Positions 50,041-64,000 of a DNA stretch of 64,000 bases are shown here, piece after piece. A program made the translations under genes and the position numbers. Under the pieces are notes generated by a model that did no database searches, was not told the DNA's origin, and saw only the letters and a program-made list of their open reading frames with translations. How positions within the stretch are numbered: the stretch's first letter is position 1; the number at the start of each line of letters is the position of its first letter. The stretch comes from Pseudocercospora fijiensis CIRAD86 (lineage: Eukaryota; Ascomycota; Dothideomycetes; Mycosphaerellales; Mycosphaerellaceae): NCBI RefSeq assembly GCF_000340215.1, contig NW_006921542.1, forward strand, positions 648,267-712,266, given 5' to 3'.

Positions 50041-52714
50041 AGGATCCCTAGCGATAGCGGAACTCCCGAAGTCGCCGGGTTACTTACTACCCGATAAGTA
50101 TATATCTTTATACCTAGTAATAACGATTATAGTAGGATAGCCTAGCTAAATATCGATATCTATAGTACTATAGCCTACAACCCCTAGTCTATTAATAGAT
50201 ATCTAAGCCTAAATAGCTAAGTTTATATCGGTATCGCGCCCCCCTATAGCGGATTATACGCCTACGCTAATAGGCGTAGCTTTTCCTATAGAAGATTCTT
50301 CCGCTACGATCGCTCTCTAGTAGACTATACCTAGCTCTATCTATATATTAGATTTGCTACTAGATATCTTAGCGGGCGTAGCGACTACTATCGGGAGGTC
50401 CCCGATTAATCTAGACGCGCTAAATACTCGGAATACTATAATATTAGTTACAGAGTAGCCCTAAGTCTACTATATCGCTTAAACGACTAGCCTTAGTAGG
50501 GGAGACGTAGTATAATACGATTTTATCGAGTATCTCGAAGATTTCTTCCCCTATCGATAACGGGAAGGCTTACGTAAGGAAGCGCTCCTTCGGTACTATT
50601 AATAACCTTATACTATAGGTCTATTATATACGAGAACGCCCTTAATAGGAATTGTAGATTATACCTTACTTAGTAAAACTCCCTCTAAGAGACCTAGCTT
50701 ATACCTTTAGATATTACGATATCGTCGAAGCGAACTATACCCTTTCTCCGGAAGGGGATTTTAAGCGCGTTTGCCTCGATACTAGTACTAAAGCATCTAT
50801 AATAGACCGGAGGTAGCTAACTATATAACTAGGGTAAGACGATATTTAGTATCTTAAGCAACGTCTCGAATTCCGTAGTTTAGCTAGAAGTATATAGTAC
50901 GAGTAATAGATTAATTTATCGATATACTTTCCTATCTTCGCTAGGTATTCTTAGTTACCCGCTCTAGCCTATATTAAATAGCTAGTAAGGGTAATACTAA
51001 ACTTACCCTATAATATACTCCTCGGGATAGATATTATAACGCCCGTAGGATTTATTATCTATACGGGCGCTAGATATATCGAAATAATAGGAAACGACGG
51101 CGCGCTTATACCGATCGCCTATTCGCCGAAATCTAATCGTTTCCTACGCGCTAATATTAAGTCTATAGATAGACTAGGAGTACTACTATATATAGCCGTT
51201 ATAGCTAAGATAGAAATCGATAAAGCCGACGCCCTAAAGGACGTAAATAGGGACTTCCTTATCGCGCTAAATCTACTCGGCCTCCCTAATATAGCGGTAG
51301 TATATACCTATATAGCCGGACTAGAGATACTAGTAGTATAGGTCTATAACCTTAGCTACGATAACGACTTAATTATTTAGCGATATCGAAGTATAGGCGA
51401 ATTATAGGAACTATAGCTAGATAACTTTTACTAGATCGACGAGTTCGATACCGACCCTAGGTCGATAGAGTATAAGATTAGCGGTACGCCTCTTAGAGGA
51501 GACCTACGACTAATAAATAAGCTCTACTATATATCCGAATCGATAGACCTACGGTCCCTAGTAGTTTTTTAAAGCGACGCGGTAGGCTAGCTTTAGTTAA
51601 TTCCGCCTCTAGCTAAAGACTCCGCAAATTGCGATTAGGCTAGAGTAAGTCTAAAATTCTAGTAGATCCGTAAATCTTAACCTACTATCTATAGACTTAG
51701 CGAAAACGACGAGATAGACTTAATAGATCTAGACTACCCTTCCGATACTACGAAGATCTTAGTAGATACGGGAATAGCTACCGTTACGACCTTAGCTAGG
51801 GTAACGATCTATATAGCGAATCTAGATACCGCTATAGCCTTAGATATTAGGTCTATCGTAGAGAAATACCCCTAACTATAGATAGATTAGGGTACGACGA
51901 TCGATCTTCCTAAAGATAGATAGCTAGAGCTCCTACTTAAATTAGGTTAGAAGAACGAGAAATTTAGTAGTAAGGTCTACCGTATATCTAATAAGGATAA
52001 TATAGAGGTAAATAAGCAATTCGATAAGCTTTATACTTAAGGCAAAATAGCCTATAGTAAAAAGCTATTACCGCTAGTATAGCTAGTCTTTATAGTCTAG
52101 AGAACTCTTTTCCGCGACGATAGTACTACGTATAGAAAACCGCGCGTAGTTATCGATATCCGAGGCCTTAATAGTATATCCTAGAAGGATACCTACCCGC
52201 TACTACTCTAGGACGATATTATTATAAAATTATACGGCTATAAATACATTTCTATTATAGATATAAGATCTATATTCTACTAGTTTATAGTCGCGGAGAA
52301 GGATTACTAGAAATTTACCGTAAATACCGCGCGAGGATAGGAATATCTAAAAGTCGCTACTATAGATTACTATAATAGCGTATAGTGCGTATAAAGACTA
52401 CTCGACCGTATCCTACGGGAATTCGGCGATATAGCGAATAGGTATATTAAGGATATACTTCTCGGCTCGGTAGACCTAGAGTTCTATCGAGATTTGCTTA
52501 ATTACGTATTTAAAAAAATAGATAAGATACGGTTTAGTTTAAAACTAGGAAAGGCGTTTTTAGGATTCCCTTCTATAAAAATCCTAGATAGAGAAGTAGA
52601 CGGAAAAGGCTTCGTAATATAAGTAGATCGACTTATAGTACTATAGGAATTAGAAAAACCTACTAACGCCGAACAACTTAAGCAATATCTCGGACTAGTA
52701 GGCTACCTTAGGTC
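50040..52714 (+). pseudogene. pol: Ty3/Gypsy gag-pol: protease and reverse transcriptase, interrupted
   Basis: A different Gypsy family from the other two. The protease-like part (about 50760-51070) reads LDTSTKASIIDR and later LPYNILLGIDIITPVGF, as in retropepsins of large fungal Gypsy elements (DTG..SLID.. and AN.LIG.DIIGPEGF). Reverse transcriptase runs 51900-52714: RVVIDIRGLNSI (about 52146), KYISIIDIRSIFY (52231-52275), KFTVNTARG, then the YxDD region near 52443 which reads YIKDI, one catalytic Asp missing without a RIP explanation, and finally KQYLGLVGYLR at 52680-52712. The frame breaks where a hAT-type element begins, and continues on the minus strand at 63429-62227 after an inversion. 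Confidence 0.8.
52707..52714. repeat. 8-bp target duplication of the hAT element, left copy (cttaggtc)
   Basis: Its partner is not at the right end of the same copy (62227-62234 is gtcgtcgg) but, inverted, at 63422-63429 next to the second copy. Eight bases is the hAT superfamily duplication length. Confidence 0.75.
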
Positions 52715-53340
52715 TAGACCCCGTAGTGGTTCGGTTTCCGAACTACTAAACGTATATAGTTTGGTTTCTTAGCGGCGAACTAGCTCCCTAGTTCCGGTTT
52801 GGTTTTTTCGAACTATATAGATTCCTAGTTTAAACTAGAGACTATATTAGTTTTACTATAAGGACACTCTTATTCGACTGCCGGCTACGATTGCCGGCTA
52901 TAATAGCAACTCTACTACATTTACTACGCTCTTTTGCTACTACTAGGGCGTAGTTACCGTTGCTAGGGCGTAGTTTTGCTATAAGGACACTCTTATTCGA
53001 CTACCGGCTACGATTGCCGGCTATAACAGTTACTAGGTTGTATTTACTACGCTCTATTACCGTCACTAGGGCGCAGTTGCCGTTGCTAGGGCGTAGTTGC
53101 CGTTGCTAGGGCGTAGTTACTATTACCGGGGCGTAGTTGCCGTAGTTGCGAAAGCTTACCTATATAACGTTACGTAGGCGGCAATAATTAGGGCTTTACG
53201 ATATTCTTATACTTTTAACTTCTTCCTCTATGCCTATACCGATAATAACTACTATACGCTACGCCCCCGCCCCTTTCTCTTATAATAGTAAGAGAGAAGC
53301 GCGCCGCGCGCTAAATAGAAGATAGAACTAAAGACCGCGA
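52715..53340. repeat. Left subterminal repeat region of the hAT element
   Basis: Contains the terminal repeat, a duplicated 123-bp unit (starting 52856 and 52979, each with a pair of ccggct motifs 13 bp apart), and several copies of a 20-bp unit around gggcgtagttgccgttgcta (52945-53150). Subterminal repeats are typical transposase-binding regions in hAT elements. Confidence 0.7.
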
Positions 53341-54720
53341 GTTTATTTTGCCTAAGCGTCTAACTAAAAAGCGTAAGACTAAAGAGGAGTACTCTACGAA
53401 GAAGAATTCCGTACGAGACCGCGAAAGAAAGGAGAAGATAGATAAGGATAAAAGAGCTAAGGATAAGAGAAGAAAGGCGCGGAATAAGGTATTCTATCGA
53501 TAGCTAGCGCCTATAGAAAAAAGTGAAGGTTAGAATAAGAAGACAACCTAAGAGAAGGCTAAGAGGAGGAAAGAATTACAGCTAGTTTTCGAGCGTAAAG
53601 TTCTAGCAGTATAAGTTAATCTAGCTAGCGGCCGTAGCTAGTAGCTATAGCCGGTAGCTATAGCCGGTAGCTATAGCCGGCAGCTATAGCCGGCAGCTAT
53701 AGCCGGTATATTTTTCTTTAATACGTTAACTAATAGCATTTAGACCTATAGCCGCTACCTCTATCGATACGACCGATAGTAACGGAGATGTTTAGATAGC
53801 TAAGAACAACAATACTAGAGTTTAGGATACTCCGATAGAGCTTAATACTACGAATAAAGGAACTGGAAAAAGCGAGGAGATACTATACGTCGATCTAGTA
53901 ATAGGTATAGTCTTAGGGCCTAACGCTATAGACGATAAGCGCTAGGAGTAGATCGAGCATAGTTAAAGAGACGAGATACTAGTAAAGGGCTAAGGCATAA
54001 GTCCTATTAATCTAGAAAATTATAGTTAAAGCTACTACGAAAAGCTAGCAAGGATTAGAATCGAGACTAGTCGTCTTTATATCCTCGATATAGAGTAGAA
54101 GTTTCTTTATTAGTATTAGAGCGAAGCCTTTACGTCTATAAAGGTAAAGTAGCTTACGATTAATGCGATCGGGGCTAGGTATCTAGGGACGGTAGAAGTG
54201 TTACTATAGGAGGAAGGGATATAGGTAATTATTCTATACTCGGTATATATAGCCGGCGTTCGTAGCCGGCAGATACTAATAGTTAAATAGAAAGCGTTTC
54301 TCGAAGGTAGAGTACTACTACTATATAAAATCTTTACTAAGGCAGAGAGGGCTTGTATCCGGAATCTAAGCTACTAGTAGGATAGGTTAGCGTTAGAATT
54401 CTCTAAATCTCTATATAAGCCTCCGAAGGATTACCTATTTTAGCGATACGGCTTTATCTCGACTACTCCGTAAGTACCCGAAGAAGCTCGAGCGCTCTTT
54501 AAGGTCTTTACTAAGAAGCGGAAGGAGTTCGAGGATTAGGATTAGTTAATAGAGCTATTAGTTAGTCTTAGGTTTCGTAGTTAGACTCGGCCTAAGCATT
54601 TGCTTATCGAGTGTCTTATACCGAAAGAGGATAGATTAAGACTAAAAACGAGCTTAGATTCGTTAGGTATAGTAGCTCGGTTCCGTTAGTAGGAGAGAGC
54701 CGCCGTATAGAAGGCAAAAT
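53340..54720 (+). pseudogene. Unknown basic ORF of the hAT element, with introns
   Basis: The first part (53345-53610) is extremely Lys/Arg/Glu-rich (helical, nuclear-localisation-like). After a predicted intron (GT at 53609 or nearby, actaata branch and tttag before 53732) the frame continues through 54720 with a second predicted intron at 54225-54290 (gtaatt ... actaat ... aatag). Both introns contain AGCCGG arrays. Not recognised. A purine-rich low-complexity stretch with repeated gtagctagg units (54720-54850) follows. Confidence 0.45.
53641..53708 (+). repeat. AGCCGG array, 13-bp period (5 units)
   Basis: agccgg starts at 53649, 53662, 53675, 53688 and 53701, every 13 bp. It lies inside a predicted intron of the unknown basic ORF. 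Confidence 0.85.
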
Positions 54721-55619
54721 TTAGGTAGTTAGGGTAGCTAGGAAAGAAATTCTAGTAGTTAGGCTAGCTAGGGTAGCTAGGAAAAAAAATCTAGTAGTTA
54801 GGTAGCTAGGAAACAAAAAAAAAGGTAGCTAGCTATTTACTACCTAGCTATTCCTAACGATACGATACTATAAAAGAAAGGGTATTTCCCTATAGCTACT
54901 AGTATATATCTACTACTCCTAAGTCCTTACCTTACCGTACGAAACCTTAAAATATACCGACCGACATTGTATATATACTAGGCGCTACACTAGGAAGGGT
55001 AATAACGAGACGACAGTCGAAATAGTCTAGTATACGAGCGAGATTGCGATAACGTCGAGAGGAGGTCGTATACTTACCTTCGAGCCTATTAAGTCTTAGA
55101 CGACGATTAGGGCTAGATTTATCCTCTCCGAATCCTAGTAGTAGGAATTCATTATAGGGTACTACTACCCAGTCCTTACCTTTACGGAGTCTAAGTAGAA
55201 GGTTGTTCGGAGATATAAGAATATCGAGTATTAACCCGGAAATCTTCGAAAAGGCTAGCTAGGCGTATCTTTAGAAACCCGAGTATATAGAGCAGTTTAA
55301 TTAATAGGTCTATAAGATATAGTTCCCTTTATACTTACGTTTAAAGGAGTGTAAACTCCGGAAGTGCTCGATCCGATAGGGGAGTAAGGAGCGAATAGAC
55401 ACATTCTAGAAGTTCTTTATAGAGGGGATATTATACCGTTATACGACTTCTCGACTTAAAGGTTAACTAGTAATTGTCTACAACTTCTACGGTTTAATCT
55501 TAAAATACCCGAAACTAGGGGATAGGAACTTATCGCCTACGAACTGTCTCTATTCTAAACGGTATCGGGAATCTTAAGGAGAGAGGAGAGTTAATATAGA
55601 TATAGCGTTCTAGAAAGAG

Positions 55620-55724
55620 GTACGTCTTCTAAAATACCGGCTATAGCTGCCGACTATAGCTGCCGGCTATAGCTACCGGCTACAGATTCCGGCTATAGAT
55701 TCCGGCTACTTTAATTAACCGTAG
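55620..55724 (+). other. Predicted intron with six-unit CCGGCT array
   Basis: Donor gtacgt at 55620, acceptor gtag at 55724 after a ttaac branch-like site. Inside, ccggct or its variants occur at 55637, 55650 (mutated), 55663, 55676, 55689 and 55702, every 13 bp, in the opposite orientation to the array at 53641. Confidence 0.6.
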
Positions 55725-56679
55725 AGGTCTAGCTAATTATTATAGGCTACGCTTAAGGAAGCTCTAGGATTAAAGGCTACCGATTTCTCCCCCGAAGACT
55801 TTAAGCAACTAGCAAACGAAATACTAGCTATAAACGGTCTTCCGGAAGACTTCTACGAAAGGGAGTCTATATAGAAGACATACCTATATCTTACAAACTA
55901 CCCTCCCCTATTTCTCGGCGCGACAACCTAGCGTATTATGTTCGAAAAGAACAAAGAGGCTACGTTAGACGACATTCGGGAGATCCTCCGTAATACTCGC
56001 CGAGTAGCTATTACTATCGATAGCTAGTTAAGCCGGACTATAAGAGCCTCCTTCCTCTCGATTATACTATACTTTATTAATTCGGATTAGAAACTCTAGG
56101 AACTTATAATCGGATTCCCTAAAATTCTAGGTTCCTATACTAGTAAGGATATAGCGAAGCTTGTCTATACGGCAATAGATAGGGTTAGCGTAATAACGAA
56201 ACTAATCTCGATTACTACGGACAACGCTAGTAATAATCGAACATTATATAAGGCGTTATATATACAATTTACTCGTATATATCTTTGAAATCACTAATTG
56301 TATCGATAGGGTCGAGTACGTAGAGGAGATTACAAGGTCTATAATCTAGCTTAATCTTCCGAATATTAAGCTCGCTACGATTCCGGATACATACGATAAT
56401 ACGTACGATAATAACGATAAAGAGGAGCCTAGTAATAGCCTTCGCCCTATTAAATCGGAGCCGACGTCGTTACTAGTTATATCCCTATAGAAGTTTCCCT
56501 ACCTCGCTTATATAGTTTAAATCGCGATCCGAGCCCTCTTTAAGACGCTTAAAATTGTACTATTAAACGACGACTAATAGAAGATCCTAGATAAGGATAA
56601 AGTAAAGTCGAAAGTCGAGAAACTCGTTATAGCAATAAGACGGGATAAGGTAGAGAGCCTCGCTCTCGTTTTATATAAA

Positions 56680-56748
56680 GTATAACTTTTGTCCGTAGCC
56701 GGTACCTATAGCCGGCAACCTAGTATAGTTCTAACTCTTTTTCTCTAG
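56680..56748 (+). other. Predicted intron with AGCCGG pair
   Basis: Donor gtataa at 56680, branch ctaac and acceptor ctctag at 56748. agccgg at 56697 and 56710, 13 bp apart. Confidence 0.55.
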
Positions 56749-58099
56749 CTTCGTCGTCTAGCAATATATACGAACTCGAGCTTATAGAGATATAACCGAT
56801 TCGAGGCTATTTAAAAGAACCTAATCGAGCGCCCTAAAACCGATACCTAGAATATCGTATAGAATAAGCGATAGTAAAAGCGGCCTCCTTAGCGCCTACT
56901 CCGTTTTACCTAAGACGTTAAGACCTAGTTCGATTCGACTTTCTATATAGTTACGAGGGGATATACTTTATATACCGCTCTCGAGATCTATTAGAGTTCC
57001 GAGGGTATTAAGTTGCTCGGCCTTACCGCCGCCGAATAGCGCTAAGTAGAGTATCTCGTCGATATTAGTAAGTATTACGCGAAGGTTACTACTACGATTA
57101 GAAGAACCCGAGGACCGACGATCTACCTTATCTTTACGTACTATAACTAGCTCTTTAATAAGCTCGAGGAAACCGTAGCTAAGCTAGCTAAGAAGAGCGT
57201 TCCCTAGAAAGTAGCTATAACGAAAGCTATAGACACCTCCTATACTAAGTTGTATAAATATTGTAGTACTACCTTTAAGTCGTTTAGGGATATCTATAGC
57301 GTTACGTACTTACTTAACCCGGTAGAAAAGGATATATACTAGCAGAAGCCGGAATAGAAGGCAGACGAGGTATAGCCGAAGTATTACTAGACTATTCTAG
57401 AAAAGATATTCTACGAGCGTCGGAAAGAAACTAGTCTCAATATAGCTCCTATAGGGAAAAAGAAGGTTTAGAAGGCTCCGATATTATATCTATTTCGTAG
57501 GTAGGAAGTAGAGGTAGAAAAGGAAGTAACTACTAAAGTAAATAAAGAAGAGTTCGATCTCTATCGGCGCGCGAATAAGTATAAACCCGTAGGCTCGGAA
57601 AGAGGGCTAATAATCTCTAGATCTTACCGGTCTTCTAGACGAATTCGGAGACGATATTCTCGCTATATAGTAGCGGTTAGAGCCTAAGTTTCTAACGATA
57701 GCGTCGGTCGCTCGGGACGTCCTCGCTATCCCGAGCGTAGATATAGGCTATAAAAGGTCTTTTAATATCGCTCGTTACTAAGGCCGCTTTAATCGAATAT
57801 ACTCGCCTACTACCTTCGAATCTATTATAGTATTCCGATACTATCTCCTCTACTAGAGTCGCTAAGGTAGGTTACTAAAGATTATACTAAAGGAGTTAAT
57901 CGAGGAATTAGAAAACCTTAAGATCGAAGAAACCTAGGAGCGCGATAAGAATACGAAATTTAGTCTAAGCGAAACCCTAATTAGTAATAACGAAGAGGAG
58001 GAGGGCGGAAGTAGAAGGCGATACCGGGTCGAGAAGCGGAAACGTATATAGGCTTAGAGTAGCTTTAAGGAGACGAAGCGTTTACGTATAAGGTAATAT

Positions 58100-58380
58100 A
58101 GCCGGCGTATATAGCCGGTATATATTCGAAATATGTTTCGAATTTCTAGGACCTAAACAGACTAGTTGCTATAGTAACCGACCCCGCTTACCTACGGACT
58201 ATTTCTAATTCTCTATTCGCTCTTCCTCTCCTTCTTCCTTTTCCCTATATTCTTAAAGACAAATATACCTTAAGGATTCGGCTCTTCGGGCCTTCCTAAG
58301 CTAGCTACTTCCCCTTCCTTAAGCTACTATCCTTTATACGAATCTAACGATAACCTACTAAGGCGGTTTAATAGAAGACT
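58100..58380 (+). promoter_or_regulatory. Intergenic region with AGCCGG pair and CT-rich promoter-like tract
   Basis: Separates the transposase from the first H3-like gene. agccgg at 58100 and 58113. A strongly CT-rich tract (58205-58260) resembles fungal promoters. Confidence 0.4.
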
Positions 58381-59060
58381 ATTTATTCTAGAAGGTAAGA
58401 AGTATTAATATCTCCTTACGATTATATACTTATTAATTTTCTAGGTCCTACCGATATACCCTCGTCGCCTAAACGCGTAGATAAATATCTTTAGAGGCTA
58501 AAGGGTAAGGGTAAAGCAAGCTAAGTATAGGGAGACCGTAGCGAGAACGAGATATCGGAAGAGTAAGACTCTCTATAGTATATACGAAGGAAGGGGGTTC
58601 CTCGCAAAATAGTACCGAAAAATAAGAAGGCTTTAGGTAGATAGGAGGAGGCTAAAAAGAGTAGGTAGACGAAGGCTATCGCGAAGAAAAGTTATCTTTC
58701 TATTAAAAAAAAGGGAATAAGGTAGGACTCGACGATAAAGAAGCGGCGCTTTAAACTAGGTACTATTACCCTTCGCTAGATCCGGCTTTTCTAAGATAAA
58801 AGAGGGACCGAGCTTTTAATCCCTAAGACTCCCTTTTAGCGACTCGTCCGAGAAATTACATTATATTTTCGGTCTAGTATACGATTTACGGCTAAGGCGA
58901 TTAGTACTCTTTAGGAAGCTATAGAGGCATTTCTCGTAACCGAGCTTAAGCTTTTAAACCTCCTTACTATCTATACGAAGCGGGTTACTCTTTAAAATAA
59001 AGATATACAGCTTTTAGCTAAAATTCGGCGTCGGTTTATAGCGGATTAGTTAGAAATTGT
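58380..59060 (+). pseudogene. Divergent histone H3-fold protein with long basic tail (cenH3-like)
   Basis: Frame starting codon at 58741 reads KRRFKLGTITLR-IRLF, then LLIPKTPF-RLVREI, RFTAKAISTL-EAIEAFLV, and KRVTL-NKDIQLLAKIRRRF to 59040. This is the complete H3 core: alpha-N, helix 1, helix 2, loop and helix 3, without insertion or deletion against the family. Five in-frame stops all sit where RIP of a Gln codon explains them, including the conserved Gln of F-Q-R and L-Q-E. The tail upstream is at least 80 residues, Lys-rich, unlike the conserved 40-residue tail of canonical H3; LLIP and long tails occur in centromeric H3. RFTAKA and the absent GLFEDTN loop show strong divergence. No introns in the core. 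Start codon not determinable. Confidence 0.85.
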
Positions 59061-59185
59061 ATTTAGTCGTTAGATTAACCTAGGAGGAGGCCTATTTTCG
59101 TATCCTTTTACCGGCTATAGATACCGGCTATATTTCTAATTTTATCTCCGCGCCGTCCCTAAATCTAAGGTACGAAGTAGAAACC
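59061..59185 (+). other. Intergenic spacer with CCGGCT pair
   Basis: ccggct at 59111 and 59124, 13 bp apart, between the first H3-like gene and the next ORF. May also belong to an intron of the next ORF. Confidence 0.5.
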
Positions 59186-59790
59186 TAGCGCTCTATTCTT
59201 ACCCGGCTATTATAGAGACGAGCTATATTTAGATTAGTTTCTTCGTATATCGCGACCTAGCGGATAGTAAGCGAAAGGGCGATAGAACGTTTATAATACG
59301 TCTCTATTTAGACCTAAAATATAAAGGTCCTAAGGAGCCCTAGTATCCTAACTATAAGGAGATTCTTTAGTATTAGCACTTTAATCCTCTATACTACGAG
59401 GTAGATAGTAAGCCTACGAAAGAGAAACTTTAACGAGAAATTCTCTATAATACGTAGCGCTATTATATAGCTACAGATGCGTACTAAGTCCGGCAACTCG
59501 AAGAAGAATTAAGACAGCGACCGAGTAGGAGAATAATAGTATATTAGTAGAGTCGAGGTCTTATAAGCGAAGTACGAGATAATATAGACTCTTAGTCGTA
59601 TAGAGTAACGTACTATATAAATAACTAGGCGTACTACTCTTATTTACTTACGACCTATATCCTAGGATACTCTTCTCGTACTTTTTATACTCTTTTCTAA
59701 TACCTTACCGATAAGCGCTCCGCGATAACCGAGTAAATATAAGCTATAGGGTTTCCGCTCGGTACCTTAGCCTCCGAGATAGGCCGGAGT
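59186..59790 (+). pseudogene. Unknown ORF between the two H3-like genes
   Basis: A continuous frame of about 195 codons with RIP stops: a start with YI-ISFFVYRDLADSKRKGD, a segment KYKGPKEP, a charged helix (QLEEELRQRPSRRIIVY), and a Tyr/His/Ser-rich end (LLTTYILGYSSRTFYTLF). The first part vaguely recalls DUF3435-type tyrosine recombinases, but the catalytic residues were not found and I do not make that call. Confidence 0.5.
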
Positions 59791-60340
59791 TAAATTGAGA
59801 GCGATAGCCGGTACTCGTAGCCGGTATATAGAGACGGTAGTAGGCCTTTTCCTACTAAATAACTAGCTTGTTTAGTATAGCCTACCTAATATTTCTTATA
59901 TTTACTAGCAATAGGCCTAGGTTACTTATAAGATTACTGTAGCTAGTAAAGGTATTACTAAAGAATATCTATACTATAGTAGGATACTATTATTACGCCG
60001 GCTATTTATTAAAAGGAGGCTTTCGCCTATTAGTATACCGGCTATATAAACCGGCTATATTTTAAAGTTTGCCGTACCTGCCTTTTTTAGCCGTACCTGC
60101 CTTCTTTCCTTACTCTAACGTTACTATAATATAGGCTTGCGCGACGCTTACTCTATTGCCTAGCGATACCGCGATACTACCTCTCTCGCTATATTTAACC
60201 TTCGTATCGATACCTATACCTCTACGCTCTGTATCTGCTACCTCCGTAATACCCTCGCTCCGCGCGCGCCTTCGTATACCTTCGTAACGTACTTTTTTCC
60301 TTAATTCGACGACTTTTATAATACCGAGTCTACTTAACTG
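59791..60340 (+). promoter_or_regulatory. Upstream region of the second H3 gene with AGCCGG/CCGGCT pairs
   Basis: agccgg at 59806 and 59819; ccggct at 59998, 60038 and 60051. A long CT-rich tract follows (60070-60330), as expected for a fungal promoter and 5' UTR. Confidence 0.45.
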
Positions 60341-60585
60341 AGTTACGACGCCTCGTAAGAAGGGACCTGCTACTTCTACGGGTCGTAATAAGACCGGAAA
60401 TAGTAGAACGAGTATAGTATATTAACGCAAGAGGGCTGCTACTACTACCGCTAGCTCCGGTACTAGAAAGGGCGTCGCGAGTAAGGCTCCGCGTAAGACA
60501 ACGGCGGGCAAGGCTCTACGCAAGACGACAACTAGCGCTTCTACTACTAGTAGCAATCGTACGAAGCGTCGATAGCGCCTAGGAA

Positions 60586-60664
60586 GTAAGTCCTATTTAT
60601 AGCCGGTAGCGTAGCCGGTAGCGTAGCCGGTATTCTTACTATCTTTTTACTAATCCTTCTTTAG
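60586..60664 (+). other. Intron 1 of the second H3 gene, with three-unit AGCCGG array
   Basis: Donor gtaagt, branch actaat, acceptor tttag. Removing it joins GGA A to CC GTA and restores the conserved G-T-V of H3. agccgg at 60601, 60613 and 60625, a 12-bp period. Confidence 0.8.
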
Positions 60665-60847
60665 CCGTAGCCCTCCGTAAGATTCGGAAGTATTAGAAGA
60701 GTTCTAAGCTCCTAATCCGTAAAGCTCCTTTCTAACGACTTATTCGCGAAATTTCCTAGGATTATAGAACGGACCTTCGCTTCTAAGCCTCCGCGATAGG
60801 CGCCCTTTAAGAGGCTATAGAAGCCTACCTAGCTCGTATCTTCGAAT

Positions 60848-60895
60848 ATATATTTCTCTTCTACCTCTTTTCGGACTATACTAATACTATTTTAG
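60848..60895 (+). other. Intron 2 of the second H3 gene, donor destroyed by RIP
   Basis: Acceptor attttag with actaata branch. The donor now reads at instead of gt; the preceding base is T, so a TpG to TpA change would turn GT into AT. Excision here gives FESVNLIAI, the same length as the canonical FEDTNLCAI. Confidence 0.6.
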
Positions 60896-61130
60896 CGGTT
60901 AACCTTATAGCTATCTACGCGAAGCGTATAACGATTATAGACAAGGATTTCAAAGCACTCGATTAGATTCTAAAAGGCTAGAATATCTATATTCGAGATA
61001 GTACTAGATAGGATAGATATTCTAGTAGGAAGGATATTCGTAGTATCGTCTATAAGCTTTTCTATATACGAAATAAGCCGCTATTATATAGGGCTATATA
61101 CCGCGCTCTAAATACTCTCTAAGCATATAT

Positions 61131-62226
61131 ATATAGTATAGTATACTTTATTAGCCGTACGGAATAGAAGTCTTCGAAAATCCCGTTAGTACTAAGGAGT
61201 TAAAAGGCCGGCTACGCTGCCGGCTACGCTGCCGGCTACGCTACTAGCTACGCTACTAGGTTTTTTAAAGAACTAAAAGAAGATAGATATTCCGGTTGAT
61301 TTGTATTAGTTTGGATTTTTATAAAAAGAAAATAGGGAAAAATAAGGAAGGTTAAAGAGCCTAATACTTATAGTTATAGGCATTATCCCTATTTTCTAGA
61401 CTATATTATATACCTGCCTTCGCAACTCTACCTAATACTCCCTCTAAATATCCTTATACTCTACCTACTAGAAATTCAACTAGGTACCTAGACCTATAGC
61501 TACCTCTATATCTTTTACTATCTTCTATAGGTTAAAGGACTCCTCTATAGTAGCCTCTACCTCCTTATATAATACGAAGTTACTACCTACCCTATCCTTA
61601 ATATCTCCTAAATAACTAAGAGTTCTAAGGAACGAACTAGCATTCGGCCTTAGTATAGCGAGTAACTAGTAGAACGTTCTATAGAGCTGCCTTATAGCTC
61701 TTTTATATACTATACCGATACCGAGGGAGGAGCTATCCTAGTACTTAATGTTAGAGAATAGTTTAGTTAGAAAGTATTAGAACTTCTTAAGGAGGGCTTC
61801 TAGGGAAATTAATAAGTTCTACCTAGATCTAGATAATAATATTCTACCGAGTAGTTAGGGAATTAAACAGCGAGCGGAAGGATGAAATTTATACCTAATA
61901 AGTACAGTTTCTAAACTGAACTATAATAGCTTATATATATATATGATTTTAATTAGTTAGTGCCCTTAGCTAATTGTCTATAGATTTAGGGTTATATAAG
62001 TACCTTCCTATAACTAAAAAATACCGGCTACGCTAGCGGCTACACTCTCGTATCTTATAAAGGGCTTGCTTCGAGTTACGTAGACATTCTTACACTTCTT
62101 AGAAACCGATAAATTCTATAGTTCGAACTAGCTAATCCTATAGTTGCTTAGTAAACCAACCTAAACTAAACTAGATCTTCGGCTTAGTAAACTAAACTAA
62201 ACTAACCCGAACTACTATAGGGTCTA
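61131..62226. repeat. Right subterminal region of the hAT element
   Basis: Contains ccggct at 61208, 61220 and 61232 (12-bp period) and a pair at 62024/62036, then an AT-rich stretch and the terminal repeat with repeated ctaaactaaa units. 61660-62226 is the inverted counterpart of 63430-64000. No coding frame recognised except shadows. Confidence 0.7.
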
Positions 62227-63429
62227 GTCGTCGGATAGCGATATAACCATTTCGATATAATAGCTAGGTTCCCTTCGGAGACTATAGAAAAATATAGGGA
62301 TCTTATCGTAGGCCTAGTATTTATATCTATCGAGTTGCGAAAGAAAACACTTAGTATAGTCGATCCTAGATAGGGATACTATATTAACTAATACTATAGT
62401 AGGAAGAATAGAAACGCTTAGATAGAAATTTAGAAGGGCTAAGGATTATAATCTAGGATCTAGGCGAGGGGATATAGTACCGATCTTTAGCGTAGGCCGA
62501 TTCTAGGTATCGTTCGTATCTCGTCTAGACTTATATATAACGTATACTTTTCCTATACCGCTCCTAATATCGTCGATAGGCGTAGGGTTTCGTAGTATCT
62601 CTAATATCGGCGCCTTTACTAATATCGCGGGAATCTCGTCGAGGCCGCTTACGTTAAGGTTATACCGATTAGGAGAACTCGTACCTTATAGTCGAGAGAG
62701 TATATTAGGAGCGATATAATTTCTACCTAGTCTATAAATAATACCGAGGTTTATAAACTAGGAAATATATACCGTAGCTTAGATAATTCGGCGGTTAAGG
62801 CTAGCCGTAAATACTATCGTTACGATCTATATCTTTTTCGCTATCGTAGTAACTATACTATAGTCGGTAACTACGATAGTCTTTAGCGCGGAATGTACTA
62901 TATAAGAGGCCCTCTTAATTGCCTATACTACCCCGAATAATTCGAGTTCTATAGGCTAGTAGCGGGCTTCGGCCCTAGTAAGTATATAGCTAGTAACCCC
63001 TAAGACCTTAAGTCTATTATGCGGGAATTGCTTAGATCTCCGTAACTAGGTAGTACTATTAACGAAACCCGAAACTATATCGTCTTTACGAGTTACTAGT
63101 TCGGGCTCCTCGTATTCTGTATCTAAGTCTCCGTAGACTTAGTAGTATATTACCCCGATTCCGAATTCCTTAGATATATTAACGTCGATATAGAGGGTAG
63201 ACTTAGGGTTAAAATACTAAAGAAACCCTCGGTACTCTTCCGACTATATCGACTATATAATTTCCTAAGCGGTATTTATTTCGTTAGTCTATTAGAGGCG
63301 CGCGCTCTATATTTAAGCGCGTCGCTTACCTCCTTTCGTTTAGGTAGTCTAGTAGTTCTTTATAGCCGCAACTTTCGCCTACTATAGCGGTAGGGTAATT
63401 CTTCCGTAATATAGTACTATAGACCTAAG
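62227..63429 (-). pseudogene. pol: Ty3/Gypsy RNase H and tether, inverted segment of the element at 50040
   Basis: On the minus strand the frame begins at 63429 and continues the reverse transcriptase that breaks at 52714. Joined after one copy of cttaggtc, it reads GYLRS then YYGRI, as in Ty3 connection domains. It goes on with STLYIDVNISKEFGIGVI (about 63210-63155), then IELELFGVV-AIKRAS and TIVVTDYS (62960-62850), the RNase H catalytic region, then LGRNYIAPNILSRL (end of RNase H). A further 400 bp toward 62227 fits the pre-integrase linker. Segment ends at both sides at hAT termini. Confidence 0.8.
63422..63429. repeat. Displaced 8-bp target duplication (gacctaag)
   Basis: Reverse complement of 52707-52714, located beside the near end of the second hAT copy. 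Confidence 0.75.
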
Positions 63430-64000
63430 TAGACCCCGTAGTAGTTCGGGTTGGTTTAGTTTGGTTTGCTAAGCCGAAGATCTAGTTTAGTTTAGGTTGG
63501 TTTGCTAAGCAACTATAGGATTAGCTAGTTCGAACTATAGAATTTGTCGGTTTCTAAGAAGTATAAGAATAGCTACGTAACTCGAAGCAAGCCCTTTATA
63601 AGATACGAGAGTATAGCCGGTAGCGTAGCCGGCATTTTTTAGTTATAGGAAGGTACTTATATAACCCTAAATCTGTAGACAATTAGCTAAGGGCACTAAC
63701 TAATTAAAAGCATACACATATATACAAGCTATTATAGTTTAGTTTAGAAACTACACTTATTAGGTATAAATTTCATCCTTTCGCTCGCTATTTAATTCCC
63801 TAACTGCTCGGTAGAATATTATTATCTAGATCTAGGTAGAACTTATCGATTTCCCTCGAAGCTCTCCTTAAGAAGTTCTAGCACTTTCCTACTAAACTAT
63901 ACTCTAATATTAAGTACTAGGATAGCTCCTCCCTCGATATCGGTATAGTATACGAAACAGCTATAAGGCAGCTCTATAGGGCGTTCTACTAGTTACTCGC
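63430..64000 (-). mobile_element. Second hAT-type copy, inverted, continuing beyond the window
   Basis: Begins with tagaccccgtagtagttcgg and is the reverse complement of 61660-62226 with scattered transitions. It includes an agccgg pair (63615 and 63627). Only its right subterminal part is in the window. Confidence 0.85.

What the first reader, a model, noticed from the sequence alone, without database searches (positions are those of the whole stretch)
58380..61130. Two divergent histone H3-fold genes carried by a hAT-type transposon
Seen: two plus-strand frames, both inside the 52715-62226 element and downstream of the hAT transposase, read as complete H3 cores (PF-RLVREI ... EAIEAFLV ... 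KRVTL-NKDIQL, and PF-RLIREIS ... EAIEAYLA ... AKRITI-DKDF) with RIP stops at conserved Gln positions. Known: H3 cores are among the most conserved proteins, and transposons carrying their own H3 variants are not something I know as a described class. Inference: the element may have used own H3 variants to change chromatin on itself, for example to resist silencing or to sit in centromeric chromatin. The two copies differ strongly from each other and have non-canonical tails, which argues against recent capture of host H3.
Basis: partly seen in the sequence, partly recalled or inferred. Interest (0 to 1): 0.95.

Follow-up and report, generated by a model that had tools for sequence, protein, structure and literature searches.

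The report
Jumping gene with two histone genes
A dead fungal jumping gene carries two altered copies of histone H3, the protein that packs DNA; this was already published as accidental gene capture, but the sequences suggest the jumping gene may once have kept the histones as working genes of its own.

Summary
A 9.5-kb hAT element (52715-62226) carries two RIP-damaged H3-fold genes, A (about 58456-59046) and B (about 60429-60978), and eight other copies read end to end carry both. It is not new. Manning et al. 2013 described an H3-carrying hAT in Pyrenophora tritici-repentis; Dhillon et al. 2019 described apparently this very element in Pseudocercospora fijiensis (784 H3-like copies, all but the original RIP-killed) and read it as a captured H3 transcript. 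My data question that reading. B contains two intron-like interruptions: removing the first restores GTVALR, and the second, 48 nt, has the length of the published '16-residue insertion'. A and B differ from host H3 by many replacements RIP cannot cause, yet show codon-position patterns expected under purifying selection. A second, diverged element family carries an orthologous A whose indels are all in frame. The strictest selection tests (transversions only) are marginal or not significant, and part of the signal may come from the host branch. The window copy lost its matching target duplication by inversion beside a second copy.

The parts
52715..62226 (+). Full-length hAT element, 9512 bp
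   Evidence: Sharp ends shared with other copies; 94-95% identical to 8 other full-length copies
52715..52734 (+). Left terminal inverted repeat, 20 bp
62207..62226 (-). Right terminal inverted repeat, 20 bp
52707..52714 (.). Target duplication CTTAGGTC; its partner is not at the right end
63422..63429 (.). GACCTAAG, exact reverse complement of CTTAGGTC, beside the neighbouring inverted copy: relocated partner, implying inversion of 62227-63429
63430..64000 (-). Start of a second, inverted copy of the same element that runs past the window end
   Evidence: Inverted repeats I1 and I2; L010 alignment
52848..53158 (+). Subterminal tandem repeats (20-bp and 123-bp units)
   Evidence: motif positions
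53722..54700 (+). Possible further element gene of unknown function, read-through frame, approximate limits
   Evidence: no Pfam match for the L016 version
55758..57860 (+). hAT transposase, broken by RIP and with frame changes (introns or indels); approximate limits
   Evidence: Homologues P0155 and P0156 with PF05699; dimerisation region PF05699 E 0.0089, below cut-off
58456..59046 (+). H3-A: long basic N-tail (start inferred) and complete H3 core from 58759
60429..60585 (+). H3-B exon 1: tail with APRKTTAGK units; start uncertain
60586..60664 (+). H3-B intron 1 (inferred): GTAAGT, TACTAAT, TTTAG, with TAGCCGG minisatellite inside
60665..60847 (+). H3-B exon 2
60848..60895 (+). H3-B intron 2 (inferred), 48 nt, the length of the published 16-residue insertion
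60896..60978 (+). H3-B exon 3, end uncertain

Best explanation
This is a RIP-killed hAT DNA transposon whose active ancestor carried two H3 genes as genes of its own. Shown: the ends, high copy number, RIP, and both H3 genes in every full copy read. Supported: before RIP, A and B had diverged far from host H3, in a pattern that looks constrained at the protein level; B has introns, so it came in as genomic DNA or gained introns, and does not look like a bare transcript copy. Moderately supported: A and B share an ancestor inside the element lineage. Inferred only: the proteins were made alongside the transposase and entered nucleosomes with host H4. A has a long basic tail without the ARKS/APRK motifs of H3, and B has a repeated RKTT tail (motif names recalled), so they could have changed K9/K27-type marking on or near the element and so eased its expression or mobility. 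RIP then ended the system.
For: Both H3s in 9 of 9 fully read copies, window included. Over 86 core codons, codons that cannot be reached from any codon of the host residue by C>T or G>A: 25 of 36 differing ones in A (one is a stop column, and two depend on where I placed a 2-codon gap) and 19 of 30 in B. Leaving out transitions that could be CpA RIP, A-B divergence is 38 of 166 sites at codon positions 1+2 against 44 of 73 at position 3, p 3e-8; host-A and host-B similar. At host C/G sites outside CpA, fixed transitions are 9/71 against 27/56 for A and 6/71 against 23/56 for B (p 1e-5 each). In neutral simulations matched for total change, 0 of 500 reach the observed residue identity and 0 of 2000 the observed position-3 share, for A and for B. 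Second family (L003): core transversions 11/288 against 41/398 upstream, p 0.0009; 3 of 3 indels in the frame are multiples of 3 against 1 of 8 outside (L018 comparison). A of both families groups with B apart from host H3. Published: transcribed, divergent H3L in the P. tritici-repentis hAT.
Against: Transversion-only tests are weak: A-B p 0.03, host-B p 0.03, host-A p 0.15. At host C/G sites outside CpA the other fixed changes show no codon-position effect (A 13/71 against 9/56; B 10/71 against 8/56), and at CpA sites B runs the other way (7/16 against 2/11). Synonymous change on the host branch would inflate position 3 in host comparisons and in the simulations, which put all change on the element; A-B escapes this only if A and B share an element ancestor. 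Within A the two families give no significant codon-position test: core 0.12 (transversions) and 0.058 (all), tail 0.67 and 0.68. The A+B grouping (94/90, long branches) misses the tool's threshold. One copy of the second family was read. No expression evidence for this element. I lowered confidence from 0.6 to 0.55 on these points.
Confidence: 0.55

Rival explanations
1. Passive transduplication (the published reading): a hAT captured a host H3 transcript by accident, amplified it, and RIP turned every copy into a pseudogene; H3 did nothing for the element.
For: Dhillon et al. 2019, main-text parts 1-5 of 7 read: all copies RIP-killed, exon-exon junctions without introns reported. A is intronless at the host intron-2 site. 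The strictest selection tests are marginal or not significant.
Against: B has two interruptions with splice signals, one a codon away from host intron 2 in the same phase. Codon-position pattern. In-frame indels and core conservation between two families. Many replacements are not RIP-explainable.
Confidence: 0.3
2. The H3 genes were captured from another organism or from an already divergent H3 variant, so the constraint seen was imposed in that host before capture.
For: A and B lie far from this genome's H3. Database matches are 38-56% identical for A (34 found) and 53-63% for B (120 listed of 993).
Against: No near donor gene turned up, but the A search had only 35 candidates because stops break the search words, so this is weak. 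A differs between two element families, so some divergence is inside the element lineage.
Confidence: 0.12
3. Element-borne centromeric H3, targeting centromeric chromatin.
For: Long divergent tail of A, which some cenH3 proteins also have (recalled).
Against: Loop 1 has H3 length in A and B, while the gene read as host cenH3 is four residues longer; A is 52/94 identical to host H3 against 48/96 to cenH3, B 56/91 against 50/89.
Confidence: 0.03

Closest known systems
H3-carrying hAT of Pseudocercospora fijiensis (Dhillon et al. 2019, PMC6710886; main-text parts 1-5 of 7 read)
   Same: Full-length set 9.5-9.9 kb, 20-bp TIR, 8-bp TSD, one or two H3-like copies, 16-residue insertion in the second copy, RIP, original 3-exon H3 on scaffold 6: all agree with what I see, so this is almost certainly that element.
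   Different: They could not identify the dimerisation domain, and infer an intronless transcript origin and one repeat family. I find a sub-threshold dimerisation match, two inferred introns in B, signs of selection before RIP, and a diverged relative (L003).
H3L-carrying hAT of Pyrenophora tritici-repentis (Manning et al. 2013, PMC3538342; passages and section 20 part 1 read)
   Same: hAT transposase plus a divergent H3-like gene that is neither H3 nor cenH3, and a central reading frame of unknown function.
   Different: One H3L, 5.6- and 2.3-kb forms, mostly intact, with ESTs. Dhillon et al. found no similarity between the hAT sequences. I did not obtain the H3L sequence to compare.
Histone-like protein annotated Manila clam xenomavirus (P0016)
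   Same: A mobile genome carrying an H3-like protein.
   Different: Seen only as a database match to A (48% identity) and in the tree; not otherwise studied.

Membership tests
hAT DNA transposon | Short terminal inverted repeats and 8-bp target duplication | tested here: met
   20-bp TIR; perfect 8-bp TSD in 7 of 8 other copies; the window copy has none of its own, explained by inversion
hAT DNA transposon | Transposase with hAT domains | tested here: met
   Two homologues carrying PF05699 among 7993 scored candidates; own PF05699 match E 0.0089, below cut-off, and no Pfam match for the other two pieces
Histone H3 | Complete H3 histone fold | tested here: met
   PF00125 E 6e-25 (A) and 1.1e-28 (B); best solved matches are H3 chains. 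By sequence only; no structure was predicted
Histone H3 | Canonical N-tail | tested here: not met
   A: long basic tail; B: partly H3-like, with repeated APRKTTAGK units
Centromeric H3 | Longer loop 1 | tested here: not met
   Alignment
Retrocopied gene capture | No introns in the captured gene | tested here: not met
   B has two inferred introns, no RNA proof; A is intronless at the host intron-2 site. Later intron gain is not excluded
Functional element gene | Purifying selection within the element lineage | tested here: inconclusive
   For. Weak or not significant: and non-transition changes
Functional element gene | Expression and effect on chromatin | not testable with these tools
   No RNA or protein data here

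The most novel reading that the evidence does not exclude
A hAT lineage took over histone H3: it acquired a host H3 gene with its introns, duplicated it into two paralogues with new tails, and kept both under selection as its own chromatin proteins (for example nucleosomes that resist K9/K27 methylation, or tails that act as decoys for the methyltransferase) until RIP destroyed it. H3L in P. tritici-repentis would then be a second case of transposon-encoded histones rather than accidental cargo.
Probability: 0.32. Interest if true: 0.8.

Novelty: already known. Interest (0 to 1): 0.42.

Why it matters
If the H3 genes were true element genes, transposons would join viruses as mobile genomes that bring their own nucleosome parts, and the published, transcribed P. 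tritici-repentis element would make that testable. If not, the correction still matters: the published view of transcript capture would have to account for two apparent introns in one of the two copies.

Tried and rejected
Centromeric H3: disfavoured on loop-1 length. RIP 'hostage' idea (carrying an essential gene so that RIP harms the host): not favoured, because Dhillon et al. give 51-55% nucleotide identity to host H3, under the roughly 80% they cite for RIP. Pfam on the heavily RIPped window transposase frames gave nothing; the better copy gave only a sub-threshold match; solved structures gave none. Protein searches for close intact relatives of A and B found only distant H3s. One search failed on a coordinate slip; it was repeated without that item, with A and B added. 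Not done: structure prediction, and a count of full-length elements without H3. Paper searches listed no further paper on H3 in a transposon that I recognised from the listings; I opened only PMC4994206 among the others (only citations) and did not open, for instance, PMC8616336 or PMC9594970.

Full report
What is there. The window is C11:648267-712266 of a 73.9-Mb, 30-contig genome. The H3 family search scored only 150 of 772 candidates, so that count is a floor. Two of the 150 matches have no stop: the canonical H3 on C6 and a fragment on C5 that I read as the host centromeric H3.

The element. 52715-62226 has 20-bp terminal inverted repeats. I fetched 20 of the best-scoring H3 hits of 372 or 375 nt, which proved to be H3-A. 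Of these 20 copies, 19 have the same left end; L023 lacks it and was left out of the end check. Eight were read to the right end: 9517-9956 bp, perfect 8-bp target duplications in 7, imperfect in L031. The window copy has no matching duplication of its own, but its left one occurs reverse-complemented at 63422-63429, beside a second, inverted copy that begins at 63430. That is what recombination between two inverted copies would leave. RIP dominates the variation.

The transposase. Read-through pieces of L016 find two database proteins that carry the hAT dimerisation domain, E 9e-14 and 3e-9, among 7993 candidates scored. The C-terminal piece shows a sub-threshold match to that domain. Dhillon et al. 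could not identify it in this family.

H3-A. One frame with a long basic tail and a full H3 core; the best solved matches are ordinary H3. In four of nine copies (L015, L021, L025, L029) the sequence shifts by one base just upstream of the inferred start.

H3-B. The frame is interrupted twice. The first interruption has GTAAGT, TACTAAT and TTTAG in 9 of 9 copies, and its removal gives GTVALR. The host gene has its second intron one codon upstream in the same phase. The second is 48 nt; the donor reads GTATGT in 4 of 9 copies, GTATAT in 1 and a RIP-like AT form in 4. Its length equals the 16 residues that the 2019 paper took for an insertion; the parts I read do not give that insertion's place. 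I infer two spliceosomal introns from signals known to me (consensus recalled); no RNA was available.

Selection. Host H3, A and B were compared over 86 core codons, after leaving out two codons of A as an insertion whose exact place is my choice. Codons unreachable from host residues by RIP-type change number 25 in A (one a stop column) and 19 in B. With possible CpA-RIP transitions left out, third positions differ far more than first and second in all three comparisons. At host C and G outside CpA, fixed transitions show the same pattern, and it holds within CpC and CpT and, for A, CpG; in B at CpG it is 4/34 against 4/14. But other fixed changes at those sites show no position effect, B at CpA runs the other way, and transversion-only tests are marginal or not significant. 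Neutral simulations with total change matched never reach the observed identity (0 of 500) or position-3 share (0 of 2000), for A and B and under two context models. These put all change on the element side; synonymous change on the host branch would also raise position 3, so they do not by themselves place the constraint in the element. A-B does, if A and B share an element ancestor.

A second family. L003, one copy, has an orthologous A, 79 of 97 residues identical, with 3 in-frame indels in the frame, and core transversions 11/288 and tail 16/276 against 41/398 upstream. Its codon-position tests are not significant, and minisatellite misalignment may inflate the upstream value.

Relationship. 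A of both families and B group together (94/90) apart from host H3 and cenH3, on long branches. A and B also share more purine/pyrimidine differences from host H3 than independence predicts (22 against 9 expected; at third positions 9 against 5, p 0.04). Shared functional freedom could give some of this.

Against the literature. Manning et al. 2013 (passages and part 1 of section 20 read) described the first such element, with a transcribed divergent H3L, and asked whether it alters chromatin. Dhillon et al. 2019 (parts 1-5 of 7 read) described this one and its presence in six species, from a single event that they place before a split about 100 million years ago. If that age holds, two H3 frames still recognisable would argue for selection while the element was active; this step is mine.

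Noticed in passing
62227-63429: Segment between two inverted copies of the element appears inverted: the target duplication of the left copy sits reverse-complemented beside the other copy.
   Followed up: yes
52715-62226, e.g. 53648-53700, 55637-55702, 60600-60624: TAGCCGG minisatellite, 35 sites in the element (3.7 per kb) against 26 in window 1-52714 (0.5 per kb), none in the H3 exons tested and three inside B intron 1; possible transposase-binding or structural repeat.
   Followed up: partly
L003 (C12:618629-621979): Diverged relative of the element (about 80-86% DNA identity) with an orthologous H3-A; five other hits of 348-351 nt may belong to it but were not read.
   Followed up: partly
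L012 (C5:606604 region): Probable intact host centromeric H3 gene, with an intron within the core.
   Followed up: partly
53722-54700: Long read-through frame with stops of RIP type, no Pfam match; may be another element gene, as the Pyrenophora element also has an unknown central frame.
   Followed up: partly
L016, L018, L020, L031: Subfamily with a tandem duplication of the stretch at window 59440-59791 and an extra in-frame APRKTTAGK unit in the H3-B tail: 4 of 9 copies read whole.
   Followed up: partly
L017: Part of another, about 79-84% identical element lies beside the full copy.
   Followed up: no
1-64000: The whole window looks RIP-affected (TA/AT 1.90 against 0.53 at the host H3 locus).
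   Followed up: no
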